From Roseibium album (GTDB taxonomy: Bacteria > Pseudomonadota > Alphaproteobacteria > Rhizobiales > Stappiaceae): DNA of 64,000 nt. The notes under the pieces were generated by a model. It was not told where the DNA came from. It saw only the letters and a program-made list of their open reading frames with translations, and did not search any database. A program made the translations under genes and the position numbers. Below are positions 4,478-49,792 of this stretch, piece by piece. The stretch lies in assembly GCA_001404055.1 (NCBI GenBank), contig CXTY01000001.1, positions 124,001 to 188,000 on the forward strand. Direction: 5' to 3'. Numbering within the stretch: position 1 is the stretch's first letter; every line of letters starts with the position of its first letter.

Positions 4478-4509
4478 GTTTATTGTCGGCAAGGGTGGGA
4501 ACAAACGAC

Positions 4510-4546: not shown

Positions 4547-4563
4547 GAAATACGCCGGGGTGA

Positions 4564-7636: not shown

Positions 7637-7769
7637 AAAAAGAAAAAAGTTGTTTTATTTTCCTCTTGCCGCTTGCCGATGCGGCTTTGCAACCCTATTT
7701 TGCCGCACGAAGCGGATTGCAGGCATGTTGTCCTGACCGCCGGTCAAAGACCATCTTGAGGAGTTTGTC

Positions 7770-8372: not shown

Positions 8373-8395
8373 GTGTTTTCGTCTGCAAATGTATT

Positions 8396-8436
8396 GAAGG
8401 CCTCGGTTGGATCAACCGGGGCCTTTCTTGTTTTGC
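8396..8436 (+). terminator. terminator after sodB
   Basis: Stem AAGGCC-CGGTTG paired with CAACCG-GGCCTT around a 3-base loop, followed by TTCTTGTTTT. It lies directly downstream of sodB and before the cytochrome c' gene. Confidence 0.75.
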
Positions 8437-8578
8437 TTGCTCGCCGAAGTGGTGGGTTCTAGGCAATTCCCCTGAACTTCACAGGAGCGTGATTTTGTAG
8501 CAGGCGGATTGTTGGGGTGTACTGCCGCTCGTGTCATTCGCGTGGACGGCGCGCAAAACCAGAGGGAGAGGAATACGC

Positions 8579-9034
8579 ATGATCAAAAAAATCATGGCCA
8601 CAGGCCTGGCTGCCGGATTGCTGGTAGCAGTTGGAACAGCTCAGGCGGCAGAAGATCCGATCGCAACCAGGCAAGCCATCATGGCATCTGTTGGTGCTGC
8701 AGCCGCACTTGCAGGCAGTATGATGAAAAGCGAAATCGCTTATTCACCTGTCGCCGGAAAATCGGCGATTGCGACGATGAATGCAGCCTCTCACTCATAT
8801 GGCGCGTTTTTCCCGGACGGATCAAATGCAAGCAACACGAAGGCTGCAGAAGCAATCTGGGACAAGCCCGATGGATTTGCCGCCGAGCTTGCAAAATTCA
8901 ATGCCGCGGCCGAAAAAGCCATGGCAGCTGCCGGAAAAAAGGGACCGGCAGATCTCGATGCATTCAAAGCCGCCATGGGTCCGGTTTTTGGCACTTGCAA
9001 ATCATGTCATGAGACTTACCGTAAGAAGAACTGA
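8579..9034 (+). CDS. cytochrome c' family protein
   Basis: 151 aa. A Sec signal peptide ends at about residue 23 (GTAQA). The C-terminal CKSCH at 140-144 (C140, C143, H144) followed by ETYRKK is the hallmark of class II c-type cytochromes, four-helix periplasmic proteins with the heme near the C-terminus. Such proteins bind NO and are linked to nitrosative stress tolerance. The ATG at 8579 has GAGGGAGAGGAA upstream; the frame opens earlier but without signal. It is followed 48 bp later by a diheme cytochrome, probably co-transcribed. Confidence 0.9.
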   Translation: MIKKIMATGLAAGLLVAVGTAQAAEDPIATRQAIMASVGAAAALAGSMMKSEIAYSPVAGKSAIATMNAASHSYGAFFPDGSNASNTKAAEAIWDKPDGFAAELAKFNAAAEKAMAAAGKKGPADLDAFKAAMGPVFGTCKSCHETYRKKN

Positions 9035-9082
9035 CCGGTTCTAAAACTGTGAATCGGGCTATCGGTACTTCAGAGAGGGTCC

Positions 9083-10015
9083 ATGAAGAAGGCAATTGTT
9101 GTCCTGTTTGCGCTTGTGATAATTGCCGCAGGCGTTGGATGGGGCCTCTCTGAACCAACACGTTTGAGCGAGACGGAGGTGTCCGCTCTGAAAGAAGGTG
9201 ACCCAGGCCGCGGTGAAACAGTGTTTTGGGCGGGAGGATGTGCGTCCTGCCACGCTGCAAAGGGGGCAAAAGGCGATGACCTTCTGAACCTTGGCGGTGG
9301 TTTGCGGCTGGAAACACCATTTGGCGTATTTGTTGCGCCTAACATCTCCTCAAGCCAGGCGGACGGGATTGGATCTTGGTCGCTGGTCGATTTTGCAAAT
9401 GCGATGACCCACGGAACTTCACCAGATAACCGAAATTATTATCCGGCGTTTCCCTATACGTCCTATGCGAGAATGACATCGCAAGACCTGGGTGATCTTT
9501 ATGCCTTCATGAATACGCTTCCTGCGATAGGCGGTAAGGCAGCTCCACATGAGCTCGGGTTCCCCTTCAACGTCAGACGTGGACTTGGTCTCTGGAAACG
9601 CCTGTTTTTGGATCCGGAGCCGGTCATTGCAGCACCAGTTAGCGGTGTGCAATCCGATACGAAATTATGGGAGCGCGGCAGATATCTGGTCGAAGGGCCT
9701 GGTCATTGCGGAGAGTGCCACACAAAGCGGGATTTTGCAGGTGGTCTTGTGCTGGCAAAATGGCTCGGAGGTGCACCAGCGCCGACAGGTGACGGGTCCA
9801 TTCCCGATATAACGCCTGTGGAAGGCGCCTTTGGAAGCTGGAGTGCTGCAGACATTGCCTATTATCTGGAGAGCGGGTTTACACCGGAGTATGATTCAGT
9901 TGGCGGCGAAATGGTGCATGTTCAGGAAAACATGGCCAGACTTCCAGCCAGTGACCGCGAGGCTATTGCTGCCTATCTGAAGGCTATTCCGGCTGTTGCC
10001 AGCGCCCCCAACTAA
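9083..10015 (+). CDS. diheme c-type cytochrome
   Basis: 310 aa with an N-terminal membrane anchor or signal (residues 2-20) and two class I cytochrome c domains. Heme sites are CASCH (53-57) and CGECH (209-213). PAFPYTSYARM with M131 is the likely axial Met loop of domain 1. This domain style is found in cytochrome subunits of membrane dehydrogenases such as alcohol dehydrogenase, but no dehydrogenase gene is adjacent. A start with GAGAGGGTCC is clear. Likely carries electrons in the periplasm together with the cytochrome c' upstream. Confidence 0.88.
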   Translation: MKKAIVVLFALVIIAAGVGWGLSEPTRLSETEVSALKEGDPGRGETVFWAGGCASCHAAKGAKGDDLLNLGGGLRLETPFGVFVAPNISSSQADGIGSWSLVDFANAMTHGTSPDNRNYYPAFPYTSYARMTSQDLGDLYAFMNTLPAIGGKAAPHELGFPFNVRRGLGLWKRLFLDPEPVIAAPVSGVQSDTKLWERGRYLVEGPGHCGECHTKRDFAGGLVLAKWLGGAPAPTGDGSIPDITPVEGAFGSWSAADIAYYLESGFTPEYDSVGGEMVHVQENMARLPASDREAIAAYLKAIPAVASAPN

Positions 10016-10045
10016 CTTTTAGCAGTTCACCGATCAAAATCATCA

Positions 10046-10531
10046 ATGAGCAAACCCGCCGCGTTCAAAATATTTTCCGCAAAGACGGCAGAGGATCTGG
10101 AAGCCGTGAAGAGGCTGTTTCGGGCCTATGTCGACTGGCTGGAGATTGACCTTTCCTACCAGGGTTTTGAAGAAGAACTGGCAGGCATGCCTGGCAAATA
10201 CGCACCGCCGCAAGGAGCTCTGTATCTGGCCAAAAGGACGAATGGCGAGGTGCTAGGGTGCGTTGGCCTTCGACCTTTCGGTGAAGAAGGTGCCTGCGAA
10301 ATGAAACGGCTTTACGTGTCGCCGAAAGCGCGTGGACTGGGAGTAGGGGCAGCCCTTGTGGACAGTGTTTTGCGCGCGGCGCGGGAAGCGGAATACGCCG
10401 TGATGCTGCTGGATACGCTTCCAACGATGACCGGGGCCATCAAACTTTACACGAATGCAGGATTTGAAGAGACCAGCGCCTACTACGAGACGCCGATCCG
10501 GGAAACGGTTTTCTTTCGAAAGCATCTTTGA
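10046..10531 (+). CDS. GNAT family N-acetyltransferase
   Basis: 161 aa. The acetyl-CoA binding motif A is clear: MKRLYVSPKARGLGVGAALV, with the R-x-x-G-x-G/A loop. The C-terminal LYTNAGFEETSAYY is motif B. The acceptor is unknown. It begins 30 bp after the diheme cytochrome gene and may share its transcript, though no functional link is obvious. Confidence 0.88.
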   Translation: MSKPAAFKIFSAKTAEDLEAVKRLFRAYVDWLEIDLSYQGFEEELAGMPGKYAPPQGALYLAKRTNGEVLGCVGLRPFGEEGACEMKRLYVSPKARGLGVGAALVDSVLRAAREAEYAVMLLDTLPTMTGAIKLYTNAGFEETSAYYETPIRETVFFRKHL

Positions 10532-10566
10532 GCTACAGCTCTGAAATCAGCAGTTTCGATGGCTGA

Positions 10567-10696
10567 TAAACAAAGCCACCCGGGAGACAGGTGGCCAAAG
10601 TTGATTTTTATTGTTGTTTTTGGGTCGCATTGCCCGTGCACAGTTTTTGAAGTTGGTAGTAGTGCCTCCTTCAAATTTTAGGGCGAGCACGGGTCT
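10567..10696 (-). ncRNA. candidate trans-acting small RNA
   Basis: Minus-strand element of about 125 nt in a region with no gene. A -35-like TTTTAC (10726-10731) and -10-like TACATA (10704-10709) with a 16-bp spacer would start RNA near 10696. The RNA then has an outer stem (10687-10693 pairs with 10633-10639), an inner stem TTTGAAG/CTTCAAA (10669-10675 with 10646-10652) with AAGGAGG at its base, a long A-rich single-stranded linker, and a final stem GCCACC/GGTGGC followed by TTTGTTT as terminator. This order (structured 5' part, A-rich linker, terminator) resembles Hfq-dependent sRNAs. Family not recognised. Confidence 0.45.
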
Positions 10697-10793
10697 GTTC
10701 AACTATGTAGAAATACGTAAAGCACGTAAAAACACCTAATATGCATAATTCCGCCCAATTCCCGGAGAAATAGGGCGTAATTGGCAACCTTGG

Positions 10794-11168
10794 TCAAAGA
10801 CCGAACATCCCTTCAATCTCCACCTTCAGCTCCGGGGCAAACAGCCCTGAAACCATCACCATCGAGCTGGCTGGCACGTGTGCGCCGTAACGCTCCGTTA
10901 GAGCGTCCCTGATTTCCGGAATGACAGCCGGATTGGTGATGAAAACGGTGACCTTCACCAGGTCAGCTAGGGATTTTCCGTAATGTCTGGCAATTATCTC
11001 CAGCTGATCCATCACGGCATGCGCTTGTTCACCACCTGAACTGTTCTGGGCATTCGTTCCAAAAGCAGTGAAGCCGGAAGTGTGGAGGGTGCTTTCGTGT
11101 TTGACGACATGAGTATATGGCCCGACGGGCAGACCGAGTTCTTCGAAATTCTTGCGGGTGATTGTCAT
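10794..11168 (-). CDS. RidA family protein lacking the catalytic arginine
   Basis: 124 aa, the normal length of a RidA/YjgF subunit, which forms trimers. Most conserved parts are present: HTSGFTAFG, LEIIARHYGKSLADLVKVTVFI and the terminal KVEIEG. The Arg that binds the imine substrate's carboxylate in true RidA enamine deaminases, normally in a P-x-R-S-x-V segment, is Ser here (PASSMVMV, 99-106). It is therefore likely of another RidA subgroup with unknown activity. It is the last gene of a three-gene unit with DUF2798 and a monooxygenase. Confidence 0.85.
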   Translation of the reverse strand: MTITRKNFEELGLPVGPYTHVVKHESTLHTSGFTAFGTNAQNSSGGEQAHAVMDQLEIIARHYGKSLADLVKVTVFITNPAVIPEIRDALTERYGAHVPASSMVMVSGLFAPELKVEIEGMFGL

Positions 11169-11186
11169 GGTTGCTCTTTACACTTT

Positions 11187-11405
11187 TCAGGGAAGGTGGC
11201 TGGTGATGACTGCGGTTGCTCTTTGCACCCAGGGTGCAAGAAAAAAGGCGCAAACTGCAGCAGCGGGCCAGGCGAGGCGGAAGGCAGCCATCCAGTGAAC
11301 GACAAATCCATCATCCCAACCGAGATTGATCAGTGTCACCCAGCCTGACATTAAAAATGACAGACTGAGCGACATCAAGAATGAGGCGATGAGCCGGGAC
11401 TTCAT
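11187..11405 (-). CDS. DUF2798 family two-helix membrane protein
   Basis: 72 aa. Two membrane helices with the DUF2798 signature SFLMSGWVTLINLGW and a second helix followed by a short basic tail (APWVQRAT). The frame extends to an ATG at 11423 that would overlap the upstream gene by 11 bp; I prefer 11405, which fits the family N-terminus and has GAGAAG before it. Function unknown. It sits between the monooxygenase and the RidA gene. Confidence 0.75.
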   Translation of the reverse strand: MKSRLIASFLMSLSLSFLMSGWVTLINLGWDDGFVVHWMAAFRLAWPAAAVCAFFLAPWVQRATAVITSHLP

Positions 11406-11412
11406 AGGCTTC

Positions 11413-11724
11413 TCAAGCCGCATCTGCTTCGGTGATTTCGCCGATTTCAGCCAGTTCCTCGATGTAATTTACCTGGGTAAGGTTCTGGGCAAGGAAATCC
11501 TTGGTATGCGGCATTTCGAAATGGTTGGCGAGAGCCTGCCGATCGGTCCAGCTTTCCCAAAGCGTAAATTTGCCGGGTTCTTTCTGGTTCTGACGAATTT
11601 CAAAAAGGATGCAGCCCGGTTCACCCTGGGTTTTCTCTGCAAGCAGGCGAAGTCCGATCTCGGCTAGTTTCAGGTCTGCTCCGTCCTGGAGTTCGATACC
11701 AGCGCTGATGAAGTGTTTGGACAT
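11413..11724 (-). CDS. antibiotic biosynthesis monooxygenase (ABM) family, putative quinol monooxygenase
   Basis: 103 aa, a single ABM dimeric ferredoxin-like fold. Recognisable parts are ISAGIELQDG, EPGCILFEIRQ, FTLWESWTDRQALANHFEMPHTKDFL and the C-terminal LTQVNYIEEL. Relatives such as YgiN act on quinols without cofactor. The ATG at 11724 follows GGAGT. It is divergent from a LysR gene 100 bp away, which probably regulates the three-gene unit that it leads. Confidence 0.87.
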   Translation of the reverse strand: MSKHFISAGIELQDGADLKLAEIGLRLLAEKTQGEPGCILFEIRQNQKEPGKFTLWESWTDRQALANHFEMPHTKDFLAQNLTQVNYIEELAEIGEITEADAA

Positions 11725-11823
11725 GAATGACTCCGTTGATGAAATTGGACAACGCAGATCTATTATTTCCAATTATGATGATCTATATCTAATATCGGGA
11801 CCTATAATTTCATTTTTGGAATC

Positions 11824-12732
11824 ATGCTGGACGACGTAGCACTCTTTATTCACATCGCCAGAAGCAGGGGCCTGTCTTCTGCTGCTGCAAAACTAAATCT
11901 ACCCGCAGCGACGGTCACGCGACGCTTACGCAAGCTGGAAGAGAAGGTTGGAGCGCAGCTTGTTCACAGATCCGCGCGCAAATTTGCACTGACGACGGAA
12001 GGGGATGCGTATTTTGAGGCGTTTGCCGATCTCGTGACGCAATTTGAAACCGCGCGTCAGGGGTTGCGAAGCGATCTTCATGAATTACGCGGGCGATTGA
12101 AAGTTGCCGCGCCAACCAATATTTCGGTTGGTTTGCTGGAGCCGATGTGGTCGGGGTTCCTGAACGCGTATCCCGAGATCCAGCTGACGCTAAATCTCAG
12201 TAATGAAAACAAGGATCTGCTAGAAACGCAAATTGATCTTGCGCTGCGTGTCGGCCCGCAAACAGACATGAGATTGTATCAAAAGCGCCTCGGGTGCGTA
12301 GCAACCATGCTTGTGGCATCTCCCGAGTATCTTGCAGCCACGGGCGAGCTCAATGATCCAGAGGACCTGCGTCAGCACAAACTGATCTGGGTGTCTGCTT
12401 TGCCGATCTGGCAACTTTCAAATCTGGACACCGGGCTGCAGGAAACACTGCACTTGTCCGCCAATGTTGCGGTTGACGACATCGGTCTTGCGCGTCAGTT
12501 GGCCCGGGACGGCCACGGGATCGCCCTGCTACCGGTAAGCGAATTCTGGGAAAACTTTGAAACTGGACAACTACATCCGGTCTTACCCCGTTGGCAGGGA
12601 CAGAAACGGGACGTTTACGCAGTTTGGCCAACAGGACGTTTGCTAAATGCCCGCGCAAAATGTCTTCGAGACTATGTGCAGGACTATCTTGCAGAGCGTC
12701 CGGTGTTTCAGGGCGCTCTGCCACATCTGTGA
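11824..12732 (+). CDS. LysR-type transcriptional regulator
   Basis: 302 aa. The N-terminal helix-turn-helix is LFIHIARSRGLSSAAAKLNL followed by PAATVTRRLRKLEEKVGAQL, in the aminoacyl-leader (CrgA/DsdC-like) branch. The C-terminal ligand domain covers about 90-295. It is divergent from the monooxygenase-DUF2798-RidA unit, the standard arrangement of a LysR regulator and its target. The effector is not deducible. The gene converges on a lipoprotein gene with a 9-bp gap. Confidence 0.88.
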   Translation: MLDDVALFIHIARSRGLSSAAAKLNLPAATVTRRLRKLEEKVGAQLVHRSARKFALTTEGDAYFEAFADLVTQFETARQGLRSDLHELRGRLKVAAPTNISVGLLEPMWSGFLNAYPEIQLTLNLSNENKDLLETQIDLALRVGPQTDMRLYQKRLGCVATMLVASPEYLAATGELNDPEDLRQHKLIWVSALPIWQLSNLDTGLQETLHLSANVAVDDIGLARQLARDGHGIALLPVSEFWENFETGQLHPVLPRWQGQKRDVYAVWPTGRLLNARAKCLRDYVQDYLAERPVFQGALPHL

Positions 12733-12741
12733 GGTTTCACC

Positions 12742-13128
12742 CTACGCGTTGTAGGGGGTGCAGCGAATAAAACGTGGAACGTCGATATAGCTTCGCATAA
12801 CCGAGAGCCAGGAGAGGCATTCATTCTGCGTTTTGAAGCAGCCAGCCTGGGAAATCTGGTACCTCTTATCGAAATTGTAGACGACACCGCCCGCAATGCC
12901 CTTCCACCCTGAGCCGGCGAAATGACGGCAGTCATACGGCGTATTGTAAGTACTTGGAATGTCTCCCCGTTCCTTGGAGAAGGTCGGCGCAAACAGAATA
13001 TCTGAAGGCTGCTGAATTTGAGATTGGCAGGCAGTCAGTGCAAAAATGATTGAAATGATCGATGCGGCACGCAGGCCTGAATTCAGACCGCGAACAGCTT
13101 TGGAAAGGCTGCGGATGGGGCGGTACAT
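12742..13128 (-). CDS. small lipoprotein of unknown function
   Basis: 128 aa, family not recognised. The N-terminal positively charged stretch is followed by SIISIIFALTAC, a lipobox with the acylated Cys at about residue 34. The mature part has four Cys (YDCRHF, AGCFKTQNEC, IRCTPY) likely to be paired in the periplasm. The start ATG is preceded by CCGGAG. The last codons form a small hairpin with the convergent gene's end. Confidence 0.7.
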   Translation of the reverse strand: MYRPIRSLSKAVRGLNSGLRAASIISIIFALTACQSQIQQPSDILFAPTFSKERGDIPSTYNTPYDCRHFAGSGWKGIAGGVVYNFDKRYQISQAGCFKTQNECLSWLSVMRSYIDVPRFIRCTPYNA

Positions 13129-13239
13129 GGTGAGCTCCGGTTTTTATAGCGGACACCTACACGAAAGTGTCCAAAAGACTGATTTGCAACGTGTTTCAAT
13201 TGAGCCGAAGACAAGGTCAAAATCAAGACACAATAGGTA

Positions 13240-13272
13240 AAGCCCTTTCGCTCAGATGAGCAAAAGGGCCTG
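13240..13272 (-). terminator. terminator after the acidic protein gene
   Basis: Minus-strand stem GCCCTTT-GCTC paired with GAGC-AAAGGGC around a 4-base loop, then TTTA. Lies 55 bp past the stop of the gene at 13327. Confidence 0.7.
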
Positions 13273-13326
13273 AATGACGTCTTGGAAAAACTTGGAGAGG
13301 CGGCGGTGAACAGCCGGATTGTTGGA

Positions 13327-14367
13327 TTACGTAAACGGGTCCACGTTTGGCAGATCGAAATCAAACGGGTTTTCTATGCCGCCGCCCATGTTGTCGTAAA
13401 GGTCGTAATATCCATCGTCCTTCAGCTTCAACAGGAGCGCTTGCATGTGATCGTCAAAGGACTGAACCGCATCCCAGGCGCCGCCCATGTCCCTCTGGAA
13501 ATTGCTGACCTTGTCAAGAATGTCGTCGTTGAATTCAAAGTTGAAATTATCCAGATCCGACCAGAAGCCCATGTCTTCCTGAAACGCTTCGCCTTCGAAA
13601 ACACGGCCGTCCAGCATCTCGATCATGTAGACGGCCTCTACACTGACTTCGGAATAATAAACACCCAGTTCCGCGTCCCACTGAATCGAGATGTTGATTG
13701 CAAATTCAAACTCGAATGTGTCGATGCCGTAGGAAGGCGCCATTCCGTCCAGGGTCATGCCCATGCCCCAGTCATAGGCACTTAGTCCTTGGGACATCTC
13801 GCCGTTTTCGAACGTGAAGCGCTCCGCCTGTACACTTTCGTGGATTTCAACAGCGGATTTGAGCCAAACAGAGCCCTGGTTGAGATAGTCGATGCTGCCG
13901 CTTGCTTCGTGAGAAATGCCGTTTTGCCATTCGATCGCGACCTTCTGGCCGTTGAAATTGCCGTATTGAACTTCGGTTACACGGGTTTCTGACAGGCCTT
14001 CCAGATGGATGCGGGCGTCATCCGACCGCAGATTTGCATTGAAAACGCCCAGGTCATGTTCGAGCTGATCCGGTGTGCCACCCAGTTCCCAATTGATGTA
14101 GTCGGGGTCGGGGCTGGAAATCGTAAATTCCGGGAGATCGTCTTTGCCTTCCAGGTCATACGGATCAAGATTCAGGAAAGGGAGATCATGCGGGCTCGTC
14201 GCGTCAAAGTCGGAAAACCCAGTCGTTTCGACTTCTACATCAAGATATCCAGGCGGACCGCTTGGTTCGAAGTTGTTTGACTTCTTGTTGAAGTCATCGA
14301 GTTGCAGCTCCAGCAATTTTTCCGGCTCTACTACGTCGGTTCCGAAGGTTCGTGTATGAGCGTTCAT
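13327..14367 (-). CDS. cysteine-free acidic protein, possible type I secretion substrate
   Basis: 346 aa, not recognised. It has no cysteine and no signal peptide, is very rich in Asp and Glu, and contains repeated Phe/Asp-rich patches such as NFNFEF and GMGMTLDGM. The C-terminus ends in NPFDFDLPNVDPFT, an acidic/hydrophobic tail of the sort seen in type I secreted proteins, but no RTX repeats or transporter genes are nearby. The start is decided by a strong AAGGAGAGG before the ATG at 14367. A good terminator follows. Secretion is an inference. Confidence 0.7.
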   Translation of the reverse strand: MNAHTRTFGTDVVEPEKLLELQLDDFNKKSNNFEPSGPPGYLDVEVETTGFSDFDATSPHDLPFLNLDPYDLEGKDDLPEFTISSPDPDYINWELGGTPDQLEHDLGVFNANLRSDDARIHLEGLSETRVTEVQYGNFNGQKVAIEWQNGISHEASGSIDYLNQGSVWLKSAVEIHESVQAERFTFENGEMSQGLSAYDWGMGMTLDGMAPSYGIDTFEFEFAINISIQWDAELGVYYSEVSVEAVYMIEMLDGRVFEGEAFQEDMGFWSDLDNFNFEFNDDILDKVSNFQRDMGGAWDAVQSFDDHMQALLLKLKDDGYYDLYDNMGGGIENPFDFDLPNVDPFT

Positions 14368-41947: not shown

Positions 41948-43096
41948 CTAAAGGCGGGATTTCCGTATGCCTTTCGAGCCCTCTTCTTTTATCGTCGATT
42001 TAGCCTGGCGCTCGGCGCGCTTGCTATCCTGATATTGCGTTCCCTGGTGCGGGCCCGTTGCATCCAGGGTCTGGTCTTGCAGCATCCATTGTCCGACAAG
42101 CACTTTGGCTGCACCGACGCTGAGTGTGCGATGGAAGCGTAGCAAGGCGCGCACATCCGCAAGGGCCAGATGATCACCGAACATGCGGATCACGACCACG
42201 CTCACCTGATTGGCCGTCATGTTCAGCGATTTCAGCGCCACGACGAGGCCATCACCCTGATCCTTTTGCAACAAAAGATCACAAGTTGTTTGAGAAAGCC
42301 CCAAACCTTGTCCGAGCAAGTCGGCCAATCCTGACCGGTTTTGCGTCAGGGCTTTCTTCATCAATCCGTCGATGAGTTTAAGGCGGGATGTGTTCAGGCG
42401 TGGATTTTCTGCCTTGGCTGGTGCCTGTGCCTGTTTCACCAGGCTTGTCATTTCAGCTGACGCGACTGCTTTTGCCTTGAGGGACACCGGAAGATGCAGA
42501 AATTGACTCATCAGTCCGTCGGGGCTCAATGCATCCTGTCCAGCCAGTTCAAGCCCCAGCGTTGCAACAATTTCACTCCGGCGGCTGAGCTTTGTCTGAT
42601 GCGATGACGACAAGATAATATCGTTCCGATCCAACAGGATCTGAATGACGCCAGCGCCTGCGTGCTCACACAAGGAGTTAATGACCGATTCGCGAAGAGA
42701 AGGCCGATTTGCAATTGCCTTTCGCAATGTGTCAGGACCGGTTTTTGCGATCTCAAGCAGGAGATCCACAGAAAGCCTTGGACTGTAACGAAGCGCTGAA
42801 AAGGCCGTCAGTTCATCTTCGTCAGTCGCCAGGCGCTCCAGAAGATCGTCCGGCATTTCGGGATGCGACGCGAGCAAACTGGCAATCCGACGACGGTCTT
42901 TCAGTGCGGTTGCAGGAAGAAGGTTTCGCGCGAGTTCAAGAAAAATCTTTTTATCTTCAATGTCATGCCCGTCGCGACCTGCAAATAGTTCCGTCGCGTC
43001 AAGCAAAATCCCGCGATCTGATGCGATGCTATCAGAAGTATTTTTTTGAAAAGCTGAATTCGGCACAGATTTATTGAAACGTGTAATTTGGCGCAT
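41948..43096 (-). CDS. DUF2336 family protein
   Basis: 382 aa. HEAT-like helical repeats in the N-terminal half (SLLASHPEMPDDLLERLATDED, ALRYSPRLSVDLLLEIAKTG, AIANRPSLRESVINSLCEH) are the DUF2336 pattern; these are common in alphaproteobacteria, including motility loci, but without known function. The C-terminus is basic and disordered. No signal peptide. Convergent with the DUF1491 gene and alone. Confidence 0.8.
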   Translation of the reverse strand: MRQITRFNKSVPNSAFQKNTSDSIASDRGILLDATELFAGRDGHDIEDKKIFLELARNLLPATALKDRRRIASLLASHPEMPDDLLERLATDEDELTAFSALRYSPRLSVDLLLEIAKTGPDTLRKAIANRPSLRESVINSLCEHAGAGVIQILLDRNDIILSSSHQTKLSRRSEIVATLGLELAGQDALSPDGLMSQFLHLPVSLKAKAVASAEMTSLVKQAQAPAKAENPRLNTSRLKLIDGLMKKALTQNRSGLADLLGQGLGLSQTTCDLLLQKDQGDGLVVALKSLNMTANQVSVVVIRMFGDHLALADVRALLRFHRTLSVGAAKVLVGQWMLQDQTLDATGPHQGTQYQDSKRAERQAKSTIKEEGSKGIRKSRL

Positions 43097-43290
43097 GACA
43101 CCCGTCTACAAAATACGAAATGACCGATCGACCGGCTGAAGTTGTTTCGATCAATTTGCAGGAAAAGCGTTAGCATGCTGTTAACCCTGACGACTTCTAA
43201 ATGAAACTGCAGAATGTAATGCGTCGCCCGTTTGACCGTTTCCGCCCGGTAATACCTACCGTGAGGAAGCAGGAACCGAAGGAGGAGACG

Positions 43291-43500
43291 ATGGGCACTT
43301 TGTTAAATTTTTCATCCGCAGCGAGACCCGCGGCGAGAGTGGGGCATCGCCCCAATAATCACTGTTCGACCGGACAGGAGAGCTTTGGTGAAGTTATCCT
43401 CTTCCCAGGCATCCGGTATGAGCATCATGACCTTGATCTTGCCGCGCGAATCGGAACCATCAGTAAAGCTGCTGGACCCGTAGGCTCTGACAAGGACTGA
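43291..43500 (+). CDS. small conserved-looking hypothetical protein
   Basis: 69 aa, not recognised. The start is fixed by an excellent GAAGGAGGAG site before the ATG at 43291; the frame opens 90 bases earlier. FGEVILFPGIRYEHHD is a compact hydrophobic/His motif. No signal peptide. A lipoprotein gene follows 54 bp later on the same strand. Confidence 0.6.
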   Translation: MGTLLNFSSAARPAARVGHRPNNHCSTGQESFGEVILFPGIRYEHHDLDLAARIGTISKAAGPVGSDKD

Positions 43501-43554
43501 CGATTACCAGCCGCATCAGGTTCTGACACGATAAGCGGTCTGGAGAAGCGCCCT

Positions 43555-44418
43555 ATGGGCATTGGCAAAGCGGATCATATGAGCCTCGCCTCAAGAAGGA
43601 GGGGCAGCCGGAGACTTCAGCAGAGTTCTGTTCTTGCTTTGATTGTTCTTGCGGTCACAGTGCTTTCCGCATGTGTTCGCCCAACCGGGGACTTCGATCG
43701 CGCCAGGCCGTCAGTTATCCATGATGACTTGATGCCAACTGTTGGTGATGGCGCTGCCAGGTTGCGCGGCGACCCGGTCTCGAAATTCAATTACACAGAC
43801 GACGAAAAATTAATGCGCGACCGAGGTTGGACGCTGATCAGACCACCCTGGACCAAGGACTGGATCGGCGGAACTAAAGTAGAGCTGGCGCGCACCCGTG
43901 TGCTGCCGGAAACGGATGGCCGGGTTCCTCCTGATCTTTATTTCATCTTTTTGCGCTCGGACAAATTCAGATCCTCCAACGCCCGTTTCGACAAGATTGC
44001 CTCCGATGCAAAAGGCGATGCTGATCTGGTCATGCCGTTCTGTGAAGTGGCACTACGTGTAAAAAAAGCCGATGACGAGCGGTTGCGCGCTTTGAGGAGC
44101 AGGCAACTGGCTACTGAGGAAACCTATAAAGGCGCCAAGGCCCGGGTCTGGGAAAACAGGGTCATGATCAAATGGGTTGGTCAGGCCCTTCGCTATCGCA
44201 TTATCGCTTACAAACTGGCTCTTGACGGTCTCGAAATCGAAACACCGAGCGAAAATCGGCGCTGGAGGGTCAATACTGCGATCCGTCAGCTTGAGGGCCA
44301 GGTTCAGATTGCGGAAGCAGGTTGCGAGCTGGAAAGCAGCAATACCAACGACGCGCCGGTCAAAAAGTCACGGATCTTTACTGGTTGGGGCACAGAGCGG
44401 GCACCGGTGCAGAAGTAG
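43555..44418 (+). CDS. lipoprotein of unknown function
   Basis: 287 aa. A long basic N-terminus, a hydrophobic segment and the lipobox VLSAC (Cys at about 40) mark an inner- or outer-membrane lipoprotein. The mature part contains RGWTLIRPPWTKDWIGG and LRSRQLATEETYKGAKARVWENR, a helical, charged region. Two later Cys (FCEVAL, GCELES) may pair. The ATG follows GGAGAAG. I do not recognise the family. It converges on the protease gene. Confidence 0.7.
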   Translation: MGIGKADHMSLASRRRGSRRLQQSSVLALIVLAVTVLSACVRPTGDFDRARPSVIHDDLMPTVGDGAARLRGDPVSKFNYTDDEKLMRDRGWTLIRPPWTKDWIGGTKVELARTRVLPETDGRVPPDLYFIFLRSDKFRSSNARFDKIASDAKGDADLVMPFCEVALRVKKADDERLRALRSRQLATEETYKGAKARVWENRVMIKWVGQALRYRIIAYKLALDGLEIETPSENRRWRVNTAIRQLEGQVQIAEAGCELESSNTNDAPVKKSRIFTGWGTERAPVQK

Positions 44419-44513
44419 CAAAAAACTCTCGAAAGCGCTGATCCCGGTGAGTTGCAGAGCTAAGTTTCGCTGTGTTGGCTCAGCAGGTCTCGGTGACCAA
44501 TCGTATTTTGGTT

Positions 44514-45611
44514 TCAGGAATTCATTGGGATGCGGCGCCGCAGAAATCTGGCAGCGTCGGAAGACCAGAGACCCAGGAGTTGTTCTCGCTTGGTATTATG
44601 CGCCGGGCTGGATAACGTCGCCTCCCGAATAGCCTTGAGCAGGCGAGAGGCACGGATCCCTTCATTGGCAATGTATTCCGCTTTTTCCGGAAATGCGTGA
44701 AAGTCTTCTGCGGACATCGGATTTCCGAGACGGTCAATGACGTTGCCGTGTTCATCGACGCGTGGCACTGCCTTGTGATGGAGTGCAACGATTTTCCAGT
44801 CATTGGAGAATACCGGCGCACCTGAACTTCCTTTTTTCGTATCTCCTGTGTACCAACAGAAGGGGTCAACCTCCGATCCGTCTTCGACAAGCAGGAAATT
44901 GCTGTTGTGAAGGGCGATTGATTTTCGATTACCGCCAGGATGCTGAATGATGTTCACAGGCATGCCCTGCAAAATCTTGCCTGCTTTCAGGAGTGGGTGC
45001 CAACCGAATGTATCAACGCGGCCGCCTGTGTCGTCCAGCGTACTGAGAGCAACCAGAGTGTAATCAAGATTTTTGTCTGTCAGCCAGAAGTCTTTGGGTT
45101 TCAGAAGGAACTCGGAAATCGGTTGCACCTTGCCGTATTTATTGTCTTCAAAGTTGAAGCGAACCGTGCTGGCCGCGGCCATTTCTGGCGACCTCAGTAC
45201 ATGATGATTGGTCAGGAACAATCCTTCACCAACCAGGAAACCCGACCCAACTGCCGCGTCGCTTAAAACCGATACGCGGCCGACGGGCCGGCCAGCCAGA
45301 AGGCCCTCTTCCAGGAACTCGATCGAGACTATTTCGTCAGTGTTTCCGATCTGGGCTTCCAGGGTCGCGTCGTCGAACGTCGACCCGGTATCACCCTCCA
45401 AGCCATGTTTTTGCAGGAAAAATGCTTTTTTCCGATCAGTTGTTTCATGAGAAGAAACTTTGGACTGGGCGGCCTCTAGCTTGATGCCTTCGATGGTCTC
45501 TATCCGATTGTTTATCCGATTGAGTGCTGCCGCCAAGAGTTCATCTTCGAGTTCGTCAAAGTCTCGAAATGTACTGCGAAGGCTATTTGGAGCATCTTTC
45601 ATCGATTGCAT
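44514..45611 (-). CDS. trypsin-like serine protease with long N-terminal extension
   Basis: 365 aa. A chymotrypsin-fold domain covers about 105-330: GSGFLVGEGLFLTNHHVL (His 137), DKNLDYTLVAL (Asp 183) and GDTKKGSSGAPVF (Ser 263) supply the full triad. There is no signal peptide, so it is likely cytoplasmic, unlike HtrA/DegP, and no PDZ. The first 100 residues are a helical charged region (DFDELEDELLAAALNRINNRIETIEG) that may be an adaptor. It is divergent from an SGNH hydrolase gene, sharing an 82-bp promoter region. I infer a regulated intracellular protease. Confidence 0.85.
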   Translation of the reverse strand: MQSMKDAPNSLRSTFRDFDELEDELLAAALNRINNRIETIEGIKLEAAQSKVSSHETTDRKKAFFLQKHGLEGDTGSTFDDATLEAQIGNTDEIVSIEFLEEGLLAGRPVGRVSVLSDAAVGSGFLVGEGLFLTNHHVLRSPEMAAASTVRFNFEDNKYGKVQPISEFLLKPKDFWLTDKNLDYTLVALSTLDDTGGRVDTFGWHPLLKAGKILQGMPVNIIQHPGGNRKSIALHNSNFLLVEDGSEVDPFCWYTGDTKKGSSGAPVFSNDWKIVALHHKAVPRVDEHGNVIDRLGNPMSAEDFHAFPEKAEYIANEGIRASRLLKAIREATLSSPAHNTKREQLLGLWSSDAARFLRRRIPMNS

Positions 45612-45615
45612 TCCC

Positions 45616-45652
45616 TAGGGTTATGCTATAATAAATTGAATAATAAACCCTT
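45616..45652. promoter_or_regulatory. bidirectional promoter of protease and SGNH genes with inverted repeat
   Basis: An extended -10 TGCTATAAT (45624-45632) points to the SGNH gene. It is embedded in an imperfect palindrome with arms AGGGTTAT (45618-45625) and ATAAACCCT (45643-45651), so a regulator bound there would cover the promoter. Binding is inferred. Confidence 0.5.
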
Positions 45653-45693
45653 TGGTTGAGAATTTTCCAGAACTAAATTTGGGAGGGAAAGCT

Positions 45694-46821
45694 ATGGGGA
45701 AGATTTCTTACCAAGAATATTTGGCGCTTCTCACGCGATCGCCCGAGGTCGATCAGGATGCTTTTGACAGGCAATCGGCGGAAATCCTTGAATACTCGGT
45801 TGTGAAAAAGGGGGAAGGCGGTTTCGAGTTCGAGTTGCGACCAGACCCGGACAAGGTTGAGCTGGACCCAGATCTTGAGAACCTTGAAAACGCCATGAAG
45901 ATGGCCAACGGGATCGACCGTTGGCGGCGAAAGCGACGGTTTCACAAGCGCTTGAAATCAGGGGAAGCTCGCCCGGTCCTGGTGTCGGAAGGCGACAGCT
46001 GGTTTCAATTTCCGGTGCTGATCCGGGACGTGATCGACCAACTCGGCAAAGACTATCTGATCTATTCGGTCGGTGCCGCGGGCGATACGGCAAAGAACAT
46101 GGTTTACGGGGAAGAAGTTGATGGCCAGCGTGAGTATATGGCTGCGCTGGGAGAAACACGAAACCATGTGAAGGGCTTCCTGTTTTCAGCCGCTGGCAAC
46201 GACATAATTGGAGAGGATCCGAACACTGGTGAACCGGCTCTCTACGACCTGATCCGTCCGTTCAATGGTAATCCGTCCGACGTTGACGGGCACATAGACC
46301 ATAGCGTCCTGAAAGAGAAGGTTACATATCTTAAAAAGGCCTATCGGAAGGTTATTTCCGATGTGCGGGCAGATCCGCAATTTCGAGACTTGCCCATTAT
46401 TATACACGGCTATGACTATGCATTCCCTTACCCCCACCACCCGGATGGGAGCAAGGACCAGCGCAGGCCTCTATATGCAGATCGGAACGGGTGGCTGGGT
46501 GACCCGCTTGACCGACGCGGTATCGAGGATCAGGTACTCCGGAGAGATCTGATCATATATCTGGTGGATGAGCTTTACGCCATGTTGGCCGGACTTTCCG
46601 GCAATCCGAAAAACACAGGTGTCTGGCTGGTCGATTGCCGAGGTGCCATGCCCAATGTTGCCGACTGGAATGATGAGATCCATGGGACAAACGCTGGGTT
46701 TGCAAAAGTTTCCAACCGGTTCAGAACGACGTTGACTGCGGCATTGACTGTCCAGGTTGCAAGCGCAACGCCATCGGCTTCTGCGACACCAGCCTCGGCC
46801 GTTGCGACAAAGATAATTTGA
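45694..46821 (+). CDS. SGNH/GDSL-type hydrolase
   Basis: 375 aa from the ATG at 45694, after GGGAGGGAAA. Catalytic blocks: GDSW with S102 (block I), GAAGDT with G130 (block II), SAAGNDI with N169 (block III) and NDEIH with D327 and H330 (block V). All four SGNH residues are therefore present. The first 90 residues are an extension rich in acidic residues with no signal peptide, unusual for this mostly exported class, so it is probably cytosolic. Ester substrate unknown. First of three same-strand genes ending with a DyP peroxidase. Confidence 0.82.
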   Translation: MGKISYQEYLALLTRSPEVDQDAFDRQSAEILEYSVVKKGEGGFEFELRPDPDKVELDPDLENLENAMKMANGIDRWRRKRRFHKRLKSGEARPVLVSEGDSWFQFPVLIRDVIDQLGKDYLIYSVGAAGDTAKNMVYGEEVDGQREYMAALGETRNHVKGFLFSAAGNDIIGEDPNTGEPALYDLIRPFNGNPSDVDGHIDHSVLKEKVTYLKKAYRKVISDVRADPQFRDLPIIIHGYDYAFPYPHHPDGSKDQRRPLYADRNGWLGDPLDRRGIEDQVLRRDLIIYLVDELYAMLAGLSGNPKNTGVWLVDCRGAMPNVADWNDEIHGTNAGFAKVSNRFRTTLTAALTVQVASATPSASATPASAVATKII

Positions 46822-47106
46822 AGCAGGGTTTCCCTATGAACGCACGACGTTCGAGGGGCTCGGAGCGCCGCGGTGGTGGAATTGCCCTGAGCTTTTCCTG
46901 TACTGCCCTTACCGGTGGTCGGGAGCGGTTAAAGACAGATTCAGATAGCAAATTGGCTATTTGGAGGCGCGGGAAACAGGAGCTGCAGACCAACTTGACC
47001 TATCGGTGAGAACCATCCGGCACCGAATTGGAAAGCCGCCGTCGCAGTAATTTCAACGCGGGCGATCTGAACTCGTCGTCTGCAGCAGTCAATAAGGGAG
47101 AAGATC
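46822..47106. other. intergenic region in the SGNH-DyP cluster
   Basis: 285 bases. A 58-codon open frame from ATG 46836 has AGGG upstream but strongly Arg/Gly/Ser-rich composition and no family likeness; I do not call it. A promoter for the two downstream genes could lie here. Confidence 0.35.
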
Positions 47107-47577
47107 ATGACACATCCATTGACATTGACGTTGAAGATCAAGCAGGACCCGGAAACTCTTGCCGCTCTTGAAGCGCTGAAAGAAAACTTCGCAGAGCAGA
47201 TTCAGCCCAAAATTGACGAAGCCCTGAGGGCGTCCAAACTTGTCCATTTTGCGCGGGTCGCTGTCATTGGTGACAATGACTATATCCAGGTCATCACTGA
47301 ATATGACGGCGACCATTTCGAGTACACGGAGTTTTTCCGTAGAGCCCTAACGCCGATCTTTGCCAAGATTTTCTCGCTGGCGGACGGCGTGCCGGACGTG
47401 CAGGACCCGACAGCGTTCTTCGAATTCTCCAAGAATGCCAATTACCGCACCCTGGGTCTTTCCGCAGATGGCGCAAATGACATGAATGGAAACCAGGCTG
47501 GGTGGCTATTCTCCGCATACGACCACGCTGAGGTCAGGGATATTCTGGGTGCGCTTCAGGCTGAAGCGGCAGAATAG
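47107..47577 (+). CDS. small protein, ferredoxin-like fold suspected, partner of DyP peroxidase
   Basis: 156 aa. The segment HFARVAVIGDNDYIQVITEYDGDHFEYTEFFRRAL, in parts, has the beta-alpha-beta look of proteins found with or inside heme peroxidases of the DyP and related dimeric alpha/beta barrel folds. No signal peptide, no Cys. AAGGGAGAAGATC precedes the ATG. The DyP gene starts 28 bp after its stop, so co-expression is likely. Family name not known to me; the link to DyP is from context and pattern. Confidence 0.7.
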   Translation: MTHPLTLTLKIKQDPETLAALEALKENFAEQIQPKIDEALRASKLVHFARVAVIGDNDYIQVITEYDGDHFEYTEFFRRALTPIFAKIFSLADGVPDVQDPTAFFEFSKNANYRTLGLSADGANDMNGNQAGWLFSAYDHAEVRDILGALQAEAAE

Positions 47578-47605
47578 TCAAAACCACAATGTTGAAGAGG
47601 TCAGC

Positions 47606-49057
47606 GTGCTACCGGACCCGGACAATGTACAGAGCTTGATTATTGCCCGGTACCGGCATCGATACAGGGTCGTTTTGTTGTTCCAGATCTCTGACCCTGT
47701 CGCTGCTCAGGGGTTTCTTCGCAAATGGGTGCCTGACGTGAATGGTGGGCTACAACCTCCAAGTTCCTATCAAGCAGGTTTGGACGGCGCAGCGGGGACA
47801 CCTGACCCGGTTTATCATTTTGCTTTCAGTTGGCGGGGAATTTCGAAGTTGCTGAAGGCGCGCAGGAGTGAAACCCAGGGGCTCAACCCGGATGCAGTGG
47901 CGAACCATCTGGAATCCTTTTTTACCAAGGAAGAAAACGCACCTCATTCAAGATCGGTCGCCGCCAGCCTGGACATGAAAGACGTCAATGCTCCGGAAAA
48001 CTGGTGGGCTGAAGATACCGATCCGGCTGGCTTTCATATTGCTTTGTTTTGCTACTTCGGCGATGAAGCACAAAAAAAACAGGGCCTTGAGAATATACGG
48101 CGGGAAGCGACTGAATCGGGACTACGCGAATGGCAGTTTCCGTCTTTCGAAGACAAGGCGCTTTCCGGCAAGGTACCACCTGGAGGCATTCTTCATTTTG
48201 GGTTCCGCGATGGTGTTTCCAAAGTTGAAATCGATTGGGAGGATGCAGACAAACCGGGAAAGGTGAACTTTCGCGAATTGCTCCTGGGGTACCCTTCAGA
48301 CCAGTATCCGCTCAGTCCTGCGGAACCAGGTCCTTGGAGAGAATTTGTTCGAGATGGTACCTATGTGAACCTGGCTTGGCTTTATCAGGATGTCGCCACT
48401 TTCAATCGGTTCTTGAGGGAAAATCGAGGTGCAGCCGAGCCTCATAGTGGGGCCGAAGATCCGGAGGAATGGCTGGCAGCGAAGATGATGGGACGTTGGC
48501 GCAACGGATCCGCGCTTGCCTTGCACCCTGAAGGGAAACCGGCTTCCAATGACACGTCCAATAAGTTTGGTTATCAAAACGACGCCAATGGCGAAACGAC
48601 ACCGCTATTTTCCCATATTCGGGTATGCAATCCACGAGACCAGGGATTGACGAGTGTCAACGAGGCCAGGTTTCCTAATGGGCCCCCCAGACTGGTAAGG
48701 CGAGGGTTTTCTTACGGGCCACCACTTCAAGGAGAAGAGGATGACGGTCGTGACCGTGGTCTTGTTGGTGTTTTTGCCTGTTCCCGGATCAACGAGCAAT
48801 TCTACACTGTGGTTCGTTGGATTCAGAAAACCAGTTTCAGTGATCAATTCGACTCAATCAAAAACGGCCGTAAGCGCCAGGACATGATGTTCGGGTTTCG
48901 CAAAAAACATAATGCAGAGACAACGACCCATATCCCGGTGACACCCGAAGGCAGCGTGCCGTTGAAATTGCCTCTGGCAGATTTTATTCGCTATCGTGGT
49001 TTAGCGGTTTTCTTGGCTCCGAGCCTCAAATCGCTCAGGTACCTTGCTGGCGATTGA
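47606..49057 (+). CDS. DyP-type heme peroxidase
   Basis: 483 aa from GTG 47606, which has GAAGAGG upstream; the frame opens earlier inside the previous gene. The DyP hallmark GFRDG contains the distal Asp (D202); SHIRVCNPR supplies the proximal heme His (H337); LVRRGFSYG has the distal Arg (R365 or R366). WLAAKMMGRWRNGSAL and FIRYRGLAVFLA also fit. DyP enzymes oxidise dyes, phenols and Mn with hydrogen peroxide. Long loops and length suggest a class V-like member. No Tat or Sec signal and no encapsulin gene, so a cytosolic role is inferred. Confidence 0.85.
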   Translation: MLPDPDNVQSLIIARYRHRYRVVLLFQISDPVAAQGFLRKWVPDVNGGLQPPSSYQAGLDGAAGTPDPVYHFAFSWRGISKLLKARRSETQGLNPDAVANHLESFFTKEENAPHSRSVAASLDMKDVNAPENWWAEDTDPAGFHIALFCYFGDEAQKKQGLENIRREATESGLREWQFPSFEDKALSGKVPPGGILHFGFRDGVSKVEIDWEDADKPGKVNFRELLLGYPSDQYPLSPAEPGPWREFVRDGTYVNLAWLYQDVATFNRFLRENRGAAEPHSGAEDPEEWLAAKMMGRWRNGSALALHPEGKPASNDTSNKFGYQNDANGETTPLFSHIRVCNPRDQGLTSVNEARFPNGPPRLVRRGFSYGPPLQGEEDDGRDRGLVGVFACSRINEQFYTVVRWIQKTSFSDQFDSIKNGRKRQDMMFGFRKKHNAETTTHIPVTPEGSVPLKLPLADFIRYRGLAVFLAPSLKSLRYLAGD

Positions 49058-49228
49058 AGGATTGCGAAGCGAGATAAACTGTGTTGTGCGAGGCCGAATT
49101 TCAGGCTTGTTCGACGCCATCGAGACCTGCAAATCATAGTCAGAAGCTTCAGCAAACACGCTCTCAATTCAGAGAAATCCAAAAATTTGGGATACAAAAG
49201 TTTGTGGCGCTCCGCGTTCAGAAAATTC

Positions 49229-49792
49229 TTAAATCGTCCCGCAACTCGCCGCCATCAATGCACCATCGATTTCCTCAGCCTTGGAGAGATGCGGCACATA
49301 GGCTCGAAGCAAGGCGAATCCACTAATCTGGCCGGTCTCTATAACGATCAGGTCTTCCAGGTTTTCAGGTGGATTTTCACGCAGGATCGAGAGCTGCTCG
49401 GTGGTCAGGACAAGCATGGAAAGCCGTTCAGCACCTGCTGTGCGGTTGTTGAGGCTGTAAACCGTTTCACCTGCTGAATTAAAAAGACCTATCGACCAGA
49501 ACGGTGCAGGAATGCTGGCGTCGAAGAGGACTGGGCCATCCGCCAGTTCAAATCGACAGGCAGCGTGTTTCATCGCAGGGTCAAGGTCAGGAAGAGCCTC
49601 CAGGCCGGGTTTGACATCAGGCAACAGGTTAAACTGCCGGTCCGGGCCATGTTTGGCCACATTGTCGAACGCACTGTGCTGAACATTGTGGGGTATGCTG
49701 AATATCACCAGAATATGGATGATCGCTGCCAGGCTTAGTGTGGCCAGTATTCCAACGGTCAGGCTGAAGCGCGGGGATAAGGTCACGGGCAC
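49229..49792 (-). CDS. DUF1254 family membrane-anchored protein
   Basis: 187 aa. One N-terminal helix, then a domain with AACRFELADGPVLFDASIPAPFWSIGLFNSAGETVYSLNNRTA (in parts), matching the DUF1254 C-terminal part. Its ATG overlaps the end of the DUF1214 gene by 10 bp. Function unknown; such DUF1214/DUF1254 pairs behave as two halves of one module and here follow PBP1A. Confidence 0.82.
   Translation of the reverse strand: MPVTLSPRFSLTVGILATLSLAAIIHILVIFSIPHNVQHSAFDNVAKHGPDRQFNLLPDVKPGLEALPDLDPAMKHAACRFELADGPVLFDASIPAPFWSIGLFNSAGETVYSLNNRTAGAERLSMLVLTTEQLSILRENPPENLEDLIVIETGQISGFALLRAYVPHLSKAEEIDGALMAASCGTI

What the first reader, a model, noticed from the sequence alone, without database searches (positions are those of the whole stretch)
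44514..49057. Protease-SGNH hydrolase-ferredoxin-like-DyP peroxidase gene group
A trypsin-like protease with full triad but no signal peptide is divergent from three same-strand genes: an SGNH hydrolase with all four catalytic blocks, a small protein whose pattern resembles DyP-associated folds, and a DyP heme peroxidase. None carries an export signal. Intracellular trypsin-like proteases, SGNH enzymes and peroxidases seldom occur together in housekeeping loci, but similar enzyme mixes with a protease are typical of effector/regulator modules in bacterial conflict or stress systems. The shared promoter with an inverted repeat suggests coordinated control.
Basis: partly seen in the sequence, partly recalled or inferred. 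Interest (0 to 1): 0.75.

Follow-up and report, generated by a model that had tools for sequence, protein, structure and literature searches.

The report
Protease gene paired with lipase-like gene
A bacterial protease gene sits back to back with a lipase-like enzyme gene, an arrangement found in about two dozen genus-level groups and resembling known systems in which a protease triggers a cell-killing enzyme; in this genome a peroxidase gene pair is attached.

Summary
The four ORFs are real, with intact catalytic residues; I see no export signal in them. The finding is two modules.

(1) A trypsin-like protease divergent from an SGNH hydrolase. Of 80 SGNH loci, 52 have this trypsin family beside or fused to SGNH (33 divergent, as here). 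The two families' divergence patterns correlate (r = 0.83). The trypsin is of the kind often fused to NucA nucleases (Kaur 2020, System 3); Sagittula salina has an nSTAND-type NTPase, EAD1-trypsin, SGNH and trypsin-NucA in one locus.

(2) A 156-aa gene next to a DyP peroxidase (9 of 9 loci), separable from module 1 but recurring in similar islands.

Most likely mechanism (inferred): a protease-activated esterase that kills or arrests the cell, a lipid counterpart of the nuclease-protease pairs of Tuck 2025. Trypsin-partnered SGNHs carry a loop with R-x-P (48 of 54 rows); caspase- or papain-partnered ones do not (0 of 12).

No sensor was recognised among the flanking ORFs scanned; a genome-wide NTPase search was not made. 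The promoter inverted repeat is not supported. Eight paper searches found no account of the SGNH partner, though caspase/alpha-beta-hydrolase pairings are known. New variant of a known kind.

The parts
44514..45611 (-). Trypsin-like serine protease, 365 aa; helical N-terminal region (residues 9-68), chymotrypsin-fold core about 97-300, C-terminal helices; triad H137/D183/S263, S1-site D257
   Evidence: ORF; Trypsin_2; invariance; AlphaFold2 model pLDDT 85.6; PDB matches
45612..45693 (.). 82-bp shared intergenic stretch between the divergent starts; no supported inverted repeat
45694..46821 (+). SGNH (GDSL-type) hydrolase, 375 aa; S102, G130, N169, D327, H330 invariant; no solved homologue found by sequence profile
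45694..45984 (+). N-terminal region of the SGNH protein (residues 1-97): low-confidence linker 61-70, then helix 71-88 with R76 (46 of 49) and R79 (49 of 49), before the catalytic core
46417..46491 (+). Loop of SGNH residues 242-266 with R257-R258-P259: candidate protease-sensitive gating loop, present in most trypsin-partnered SGNHs, not seen in caspase- or papain-partnered ones
   Evidence: cleavage is inferred, not shown
47107..47577 (+). 156-aa protein of unknown fold, next to a DyP gene in the 9 loci examined
47606..49057 (+). DyP-type haem peroxidase, 483 aa (corrected start), D202/H337/R366

Best explanation
The core is a two-gene module made of a cytoplasmic trypsin-like protease and a cytoplasmic SGNH esterase/lipase. 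The SGNH enzyme is held inactive. When a trigger (phage infection, envelope damage or a developmental signal, unknown) activates the protease, it cuts the SGNH enzyme after an arginine, most likely in the 242-266 loop or in the basic helix before the core. The freed esterase then attacks membrane lipids or cell-wall esters and kills, lyses or arrests the cell. The 156-aa/DyP pair is an optional second oxidative effector recruited beside such modules. Shown: the conserved linkage, the correlated divergence, the conserved active-site residues, the kinship of the trypsin to the NucA-coupled kind, and the loop difference by partner type. Inferred: cytoplasmic location, autoinhibition, cleavage, substrate, trigger and outcome.
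For: Linkage: trypsin beside or fused to SGNH in 52 of 80 loci (33 divergent, 8 tandem, 10 fused, 1 convergent). In 101 relatives the full-length trypsin (E<=1e-130) is in 6 genomes, each time next to SGNH (Fisher p 1.7e-7). Protease and SGNH identity matrices over 26 pairs correlate at r = 0.83, best of 2000 permutations 0.27. Other proteases take the same place: papain-like (local profile) in 10 of 80 loci, caspase fused in 7 of 80. Conflict context: Sagittula L112 has an nSTAND1/AAA_16 NTPase, EAD1, EAD1-trypsin, SGNH and trypsin-NucA. SGNH is elsewhere fused to amidase, M15, S8 or caspase domains. Loop: R-x-P in 48 of 54 trypsin-partnered rows and 0 of 12 caspase- or papain-partnered rows. 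S1-site Asp257 28 of 28 in A6. Precedents: Tuck 2025 (trypsin or caspase opens a gated pro-nuclease) and Banks 2026 (LypC trypsin activity needed for lysis; lytic effector unknown).
Against: No sensor or adaptor was recognised in the flanking ORFs scanned; EAD1 was not found in the genome, but that search rang nowhere, controls included. The modelled loop is well ordered (block pLDDT 87-92), unlike the disordered gates of Tuck 2025. Trypsin-partnered SGNHs are mostly related to each other, so rows are not independent; 8 of 11 rows with no trypsin, caspase or papain next to them also carry the R-x-P loop, and the basic helix is kept with some caspase-fused forms. S1-site Asp is not strictly invariant in the wider family (90% or more in the 15 rows of A2). 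In a draw of 385 alphaproteobacterial genomes trypsin (6) and SGNH (8) coincide only in the window's genome. No protease was found in 16 of 80 SGNH loci. No phage link: no trypsin relative and 6 weak SGNH relatives in viral contigs.
Confidence: 0.5

Rival explanations
1. The SGNH enzyme is not a proenzyme. Protease and esterase are parallel effectors of a broad self-demolition or antagonism arsenal (proteases, nucleases, peptidoglycan hydrolases, lipases, peroxidases), released on lysis or delivered by a secretion route, and are paired only because they are deployed together.
For: Related islands hold many hydrolases side by side: amidase plus glucosaminidase, S8, SGNH, papain-like, 156-aa and DyP in Mesorhizobium L077; GH19, amidase, murein endopeptidase and a trypsin-SGNH fusion in Geminocystis L022; PLD, S1/P1 nuclease, trypsin-NucA, CHAT, DyP fusion, EEP and heparin lyase in Rhizobium L147.
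Against: In 30 of the 33 divergent loci no further gene of the families scanned with my local profiles (papain, caspase, NucA, EEP, M15, Amidase_3, S8, DyP, 156-aa) was found in the stretch held (few-seed profiles can miss). The two families track each other in divergence; the loop differs by protease partner.
Confidence: 0.25
2. The pair is a metabolic or stress unit (for example turnover of misfolded or acylated proteins, or storage lipid), not a killing system.
For: The window's neighbours look like housekeeping genes (my reading); close folds of the protease include the quality-control enzymes DegS, DegP and HtrA1. In some genomes of the window's genus a BlaI/M56-like pair adjoins the SGNH, the four-gene block or the DyP pair.
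Against: Patchy distribution (SGNH in 17 of 101 relatives, 8 of 385 in the class), many trypsin relatives annotated as nucleases (15 of 30 listed rows), STAND/EAD1 partners in Sagittula. The BlaI/M56 pair was found only in loci of that one genus.
Confidence: 0.2
3. The DyP/156-aa pair is unrelated to the trypsin-SGNH pair and is next to it by chance.
For: 7 of 9 loci with the 156-aa/DyP pair have no such trypsin in the stretch examined; the gap between SGNH and the 156-aa gene is 285 bp.
Against: The same four-gene order occurs in two genomes of one genus in different surroundings (window and L026); an SGNH lies within 10 kb of the pair in Mesorhizobium L077; a DyP fusion adjoins an SGNH-trypsin-EEP fusion in Tropicimonas L090, and trypsin-NucA genes or pieces lie within 6 kb of DyP fusions in 5 of 10 plasmid records opened.
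Confidence: 0.4

Closest known systems
System 3, NucA-peptidase conflict system (Kaur et al. 2020, eLife, PMC7159879; section 32 read in full; other passages by term)
   Same: Trypsin-like core protease of the same kind: 15 of the 30 listed plasmid relatives (78 records in all) are annotated as DNA/RNA non-specific endonuclease; the paper says mostly alphaproteobacterial; Sagittula L112 has EAD1, an nSTAND-type NTPase, trypsin-NucA and the SGNH in one locus.
   Different: No NucA in the window locus or found in its genome; the partner is an SGNH hydrolase. The words lipase and peroxidase do not occur in that paper's main text and SGNH has 0 occurrences.
Caspase with alpha/beta-hydrolase pairing in VMAP ternary systems (Kaur et al. 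2020, passages; membrane-lipid alpha/beta-hydrolases also in Kaur et al. 2021, PMC8195603, passages)
   Same: A protease regularly encoded beside a hydrolase thought to act on lipids.
   Different: Alpha/beta-hydrolase fold and caspases there, with MoxR and vWA partners; here an SGNH-fold enzyme with a trypsin and no such partners seen.
LypABC of Caulobacter crescentus, CARD-NLR-like (Banks et al. 2026, Nat Microbiol, PMC13236601; abstract, section 9 and discussion read; passages)
   Same: LypC has a trypsin domain needed for lysis and a dispensable endonuclease; the lytic effector is unknown, so an esterase partner as in the window would fit that vacancy.
   Different: No LypA/LypB-like gene recognised beside the window pair; the LypC sequence was not fetched, so homology to LypC itself was not tested.
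Nuclease-protease pairs and canu (Tuck et al. 2025, Science, PMC12799240; abstract, introduction and passages read)
   Same: A trypsin or a caspase is paired with a hydrolase, gene trees are similar, and the hydrolase carries insertions cut by the protease.
   Different: Effector there is an MBL-fold nuclease and the trypsin is fused to a defence enzyme; here the partner is an SGNH hydrolase and no sensor is attached. Cleavage sites there are isoleucines; here an arginine is predicted.
DyP-type peroxidases (NCBIfam TIGR01413)
   Same: Asp, His and Arg of the active site (roles recalled) and the overall match.
   Different: 46.3 bits, below the curated 100.5; small 156-aa partner gene next to it.
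Human FAM111A protease domain
   Different: 20% identity; HtrA and V8 proteases score within 2 of it, so no special kinship is claimed.

Membership tests
Kaur System 3 (NucA-peptidase) | Trypsin-like peptidase of the NucA-coupled kind | tested here: met
   relatives found by the window protease include trypsin-NucA and trypsin-EEP fusions
Kaur System 3 (NucA-peptidase) | NucA (Endonuclease_NS) nuclease in the same protein or operon | tested here: not met
   no hit in the eight ORFs scanned; 0 in the whole genome; 4 of 14 controls ring
Kaur System 3 (NucA-peptidase) | EAD1 on a trypsin or neighbour (a subset of systems) | tested here: not met
   no EAD1 in the window protease or the 27 other proteases of A6; genome search uninformative as no control rang
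CARD-NLR / LypABC | CARD-trypsin plus NLR-like ATPase genes in the operon | tested here: not met
   none among the eight ORFs of 41948-49792 scanned; genome-wide NLR search not made; N-terminal helices of the protease model were not compared with CARD structures on their own
Nuclease-protease pair (Tuck 2025) | MBL-fold pro-nuclease partner | tested here: not met
   partner is an SGNH hydrolase
Nuclease-protease pair (Tuck 2025) | Partner is a proenzyme cut by the protease | not testable with these tools
   loop correlation only
SGNH hydrolase superfamily | Four blocks: GDS Ser, Gly, Asn, DxxH | tested here: met
   49 of 49 for S102, G130, N169, D327, H330; fold
Trypsin_2 / S1 peptidase | His-Asp-Ser triad | tested here: met
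   28 of 28
DyP peroxidase | Catalytic Asp of GxxDG, proximal His, distal Arg (roles recalled) | tested here: met
   4 of 4; NCBIfam below cut-off; no Pfam hit

The most novel reading that the evidence does not exclude
Protease-gated SGNH esterases are a general class of bacterial suicide or immune effector, parallel to protease-gated nucleases. One SGNH family is paired with trypsins, papain-like proteases and caspases in several phyla, carries a partner-specific gating loop, and is the kind of unknown lytic effector that LypABC-like systems are thought to trigger, with DyP peroxidases as an oxidative add-on.
Probability: 0.3. Interest if true: 0.78.

Novelty: new variant of a known kind. Interest (0 to 1): 0.58.

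Why it matters
Protease-triggered killing in bacteria is known for gasdermins and nucleases, and caspases have been noted beside alpha/beta-hydrolases. A conserved trypsin-SGNH pair would add a second, independent lipid- or ester-cleaving enzyme fold to that list and offers concrete candidates for the unnamed lytic effectors of CARD-NLR-like systems such as LypABC. It is a compact two-gene unit, so the idea can be tested directly by co-expression and in vitro cleavage.

Tried and rejected
Inverted repeat as an operator: rejected, not seen in the other four-gene locus and only short or imperfect. Effector-associated or Trypco domains in the window protease: no hit in the protein or its 27 relatives in A6. 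A shared N-terminal adaptor of SGNH or protease in other neighbour genes: none found by local profile search. Phage origin: 6 distant SGNH hits, no protease hit in viral contigs. PADLOC: RT-Protease_XI (E 4.1e-6) and weaker hits (Avs1b E 0.061), through the trypsin domain. BlaI/M56 as a general regulator of the module: found only in loci of the window's genus. The 156-aa protein as the stand-alone form of a domain inside the ~950-aa DyP fusion: hhalign gave only weak matches (probability 0.3%, 2.7% and 4.8%; E 0.18, 0.017 and 0.0083), so suggestive at most; PDB profile search gave only E 0.93 or worse. Co-occurrence in the class draw was not seen beyond the window's genome (only the best 5 candidates per genome were scored there). 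VIA-align listed no known fold for the N-terminal helices, which it barely tests. Papers were searched by term; Wein et al. 2025 was not held and is cited only as described by Banks 2026.
Full report
OBSERVATION. The four ORFs exist. The protease (44514-45611, minus) is Trypsin_2 with His137, Asp183 and Ser263 in 28 of 28 aligned relatives. The SGNH protein (45694-46821, plus) has no Pfam hit itself, but 15 of 49 family members hit Lipase_GDSL_2 at E<=0.1, the AlphaFold2 model (pLDDT 90.2) matches GDSL lipases, and Ser102, Gly130, Asn169, Asp327 and His330 are in 49 of 49. The DyP has no Pfam hit but matches NCBIfam Dyp_perox_fam below cut-off and solved DyPs; relatives begin at GTG 47606, so it does not overlap the 156-aa gene. 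The inverted repeat is not supported; the single sigma-70-like hit of the promoter scan lies in the shared stretch, on the protease strand, against 2.9 hits expected in the region. Absence of export signals is my reading of the sequences; no program was run.

MODULE 1, TRYPSIN-SGNH. Gene calling, profiles and tblastn place the same trypsin family next to or fused with SGNH in 52 of 80: 33 divergent, 8 tandem (two of them with gaps of 277 and 750 bp), 10 fused, 1 convergent. One search found 30 divergent loci under 24 genus-level labels (my labels from record titles); one search added three and one fusion. In three loci no SGNH gene was called by my script. Members include gammaproteobacteria and MAGs labelled Opitutaceae and Calditrichia (MAG labels may be wrong). 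Papain-like proteases adjoin SGNH in 10 of 80 and caspases are fused in 7 of 80 (local profiles; Pfam Peptidase_C1 supports L113 just below and L077 just above its cut-off, and finds nothing in L032 or L106). So 64 of 80 have some protease (52 trypsin, 11 papain or caspase only, 1 S8 nearby in L077); in 16 none was found.

In 101 relatives the full-length trypsin (E<=1e-130) is in 6 genomes and SGNH (E<=1e-100) in 10; all 6 trypsins adjoin SGNH by coordinates (Fisher p 1.7e-7). At looser cut-offs 10 genomes hold both, of 19 with trypsin and 17 with SGNH (p 4.7e-5). Identity matrices over 26 pairs correlate at 0.83, permutations at most 0.27 of 2000. This has no control for species relatedness, but members labelled Opitutaceae and Arenicella are nearest neighbours in both families. 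Against this, a draw of 385 alphaproteobacteria holds trypsin in 6 and SGNH in 8 genomes with only the window's genome in common. Of the 7 other SGNH loci there, 3 have a papain-like gene within two genes and 4 have nothing found; the other trypsins include fusions with NucA (L133, L134) and with amidase and EEP (L135).

WHAT KIND OF SYSTEM. The window protease has relatives in 78 plasmid records; 15 of the 30 listed are annotated as DNA/RNA non-specific endonuclease. Pfam shows trypsin with Endonuclease_NS, Exo_endo_phos or Endonuclease I, and SGNH fused with Amidase_3, M15, M74, S8 or caspase. Sagittula salina L112 holds, in order, an nSTAND1/AAA_16 NTPase, an EAD1 protein, EAD1-trypsin divergent from SGNH, then trypsin-NucA. 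That is System 3 of Kaur 2020 (section 32) with an SGNH added. No Endonuclease_NS was found in the window genome, so the window locus is not filed as System 3. Kaur 2020 also reports caspases with neighbouring alpha/beta-hydrolases in other systems, so a protease beside a lipid hydrolase is not new in principle; the SGNH fold and the trypsin partner are.

MECHANISM. Tuck 2025 (abstract, introduction and passages) show trypsins and caspases opening gated pro-nucleases that carry protease-sensitive insertions. Here the loop between the HGYD and WLG motifs is 18 residues or longer in 49 and carries R-x-P in 48 of 54 trypsin-partnered SGNH rows, against 0 of 12 caspase- or papain-partnered rows (13 of 90 rows lacked the flanking motifs and were dropped; rows are not independent; 8 of 11 rows with none of these proteases next to them also have it). 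The residue six before the catalytic Ser, the S1 specificity site in trypsin numbering (recalled), is Asp in 28 of 28 of A6 and in at least 90% of the 15 rows of A2, predicting cleavage after Arg or Lys. Arg79 in the helix before the SGNH core is 49 of 49 of A5; the basic stretch is kept in some caspase-fused forms, so it may be structural or membrane-binding. The protease model (pLDDT 85.6) has three N-terminal helices and a chymotrypsin fold nearest to FAM111A, HtrA and V8 proteases. Banks 2026 found that LypC's trypsin is needed for lysis, its nuclease is not, and the lytic effector is unknown; an SGNH esterase would fit, which is inference.

MODULE 2, 156-AA/DYP. The 156-aa gene adjoins a DyP in 9 of 9 loci (window, L026, L039, L040, L077, L143, L161, L162, L163). 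It is rare: 1 of 385, 2 of 249 and 5 of 101 genomes. It occurs with the trypsin in 2 of 9 and with SGNH in 3 of 9. In the window's genus (Roseibium/Labrenzia by the titles of L045-L047, the same contigs by length and coordinates as L023, L025 and L026) the BlaI/M56 site carries all four genes (L026), SGNH alone (L023-L025) or 156-aa/DyP alone (L162, L163), so the modules separate. The four-gene order in the window lies in other surroundings, so the block recurs as a unit too. A longer DyP fusion adjoins an SGNH-trypsin-EEP fusion in Tropicimonas L090. Of 81 plasmid records with relatives of that fusion 15 were listed and 10 opened: trypsin-NucA or a piece of it lies within 6 kb in 5 (H88, H89, H90, H92, H93), only an annotated NucA piece in H95, and none in H91, H96, H97, H98. 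The first eight rows are rhizobial and close kin, so this is few independent events.

NOVELTY. Paper searches found no description of the trypsin-SGNH pairing or of DyP in such systems. Only open-licence papers are held, and Wein 2025, said by Banks 2026 to mention phospholipase effectors in CARD-NLR variants, was not held, so the pairing may already be touched on there. I therefore rate it a new variant of a known kind.

Noticed in passing
L112 (Sagittula salina) 3337-13392: nSTAND-type NTPase, EAD1 protein, EAD1-trypsin, SGNH, trypsin-NucA in one locus: the best candidate for a complete, sensor-equipped version.
   Followed up: partly
L023-L026, L045-L047, L162, L163: A BlaI-like and an M56 (BlaR1-like) gene precede SGNH, the four-gene block or the 156-aa/DyP pair in several genomes of the window's genus; identified by sequence resemblance recalled, not by a profile.
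   Followed up: partly
L033 and L038: Adjacent genes for a protein that begins with GIGG or GMHG repeats (PAP2 hit in L038), an S8-like protein and a regulator of the same cluster as a BTAD-annotated one in L021, beside SGNH genes.
   Followed up: no
L077 3074-18981 (Mesorhizobium): Amidase plus glucosaminidase with ankyrin repeats, S8, SGNH, papain-like, 156-aa and DyP in one 16-kb island.
   Followed up: partly
L145, L146, L147, L160 (rhizobial plasmids): Recurrent islands of trypsin-NucA, ~950-aa DyP fusion and heparin-lyase-like genes, with EEP, PLD, CHAT or S1/P1 nuclease genes in some.
   Followed up: partly
L144 (Bradyrhizobium barranii plasmid) 1-30410: The 156-aa/DyP pair lies near a CHAT gene and several oxidative enzymes annotated as LodA/GoxA oxidase, FAD monooxygenase, tryptophan halogenase and ferritin-like.
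   Followed up: no
[not shown]
   Followed up: no
L034 and L036: Copies of a ~206-aa gene family (several in L036) and a 283-aa gene also found in Hymenobacter L043, near SGNH-M15 and trypsin-EEP genes.
   Followed up: no
L030 11619-12449: A protein with a papain-like Cys motif (by eye) adjoins the trypsin gene in Pseudovibrio (no Pfam hit).
   Followed up: no
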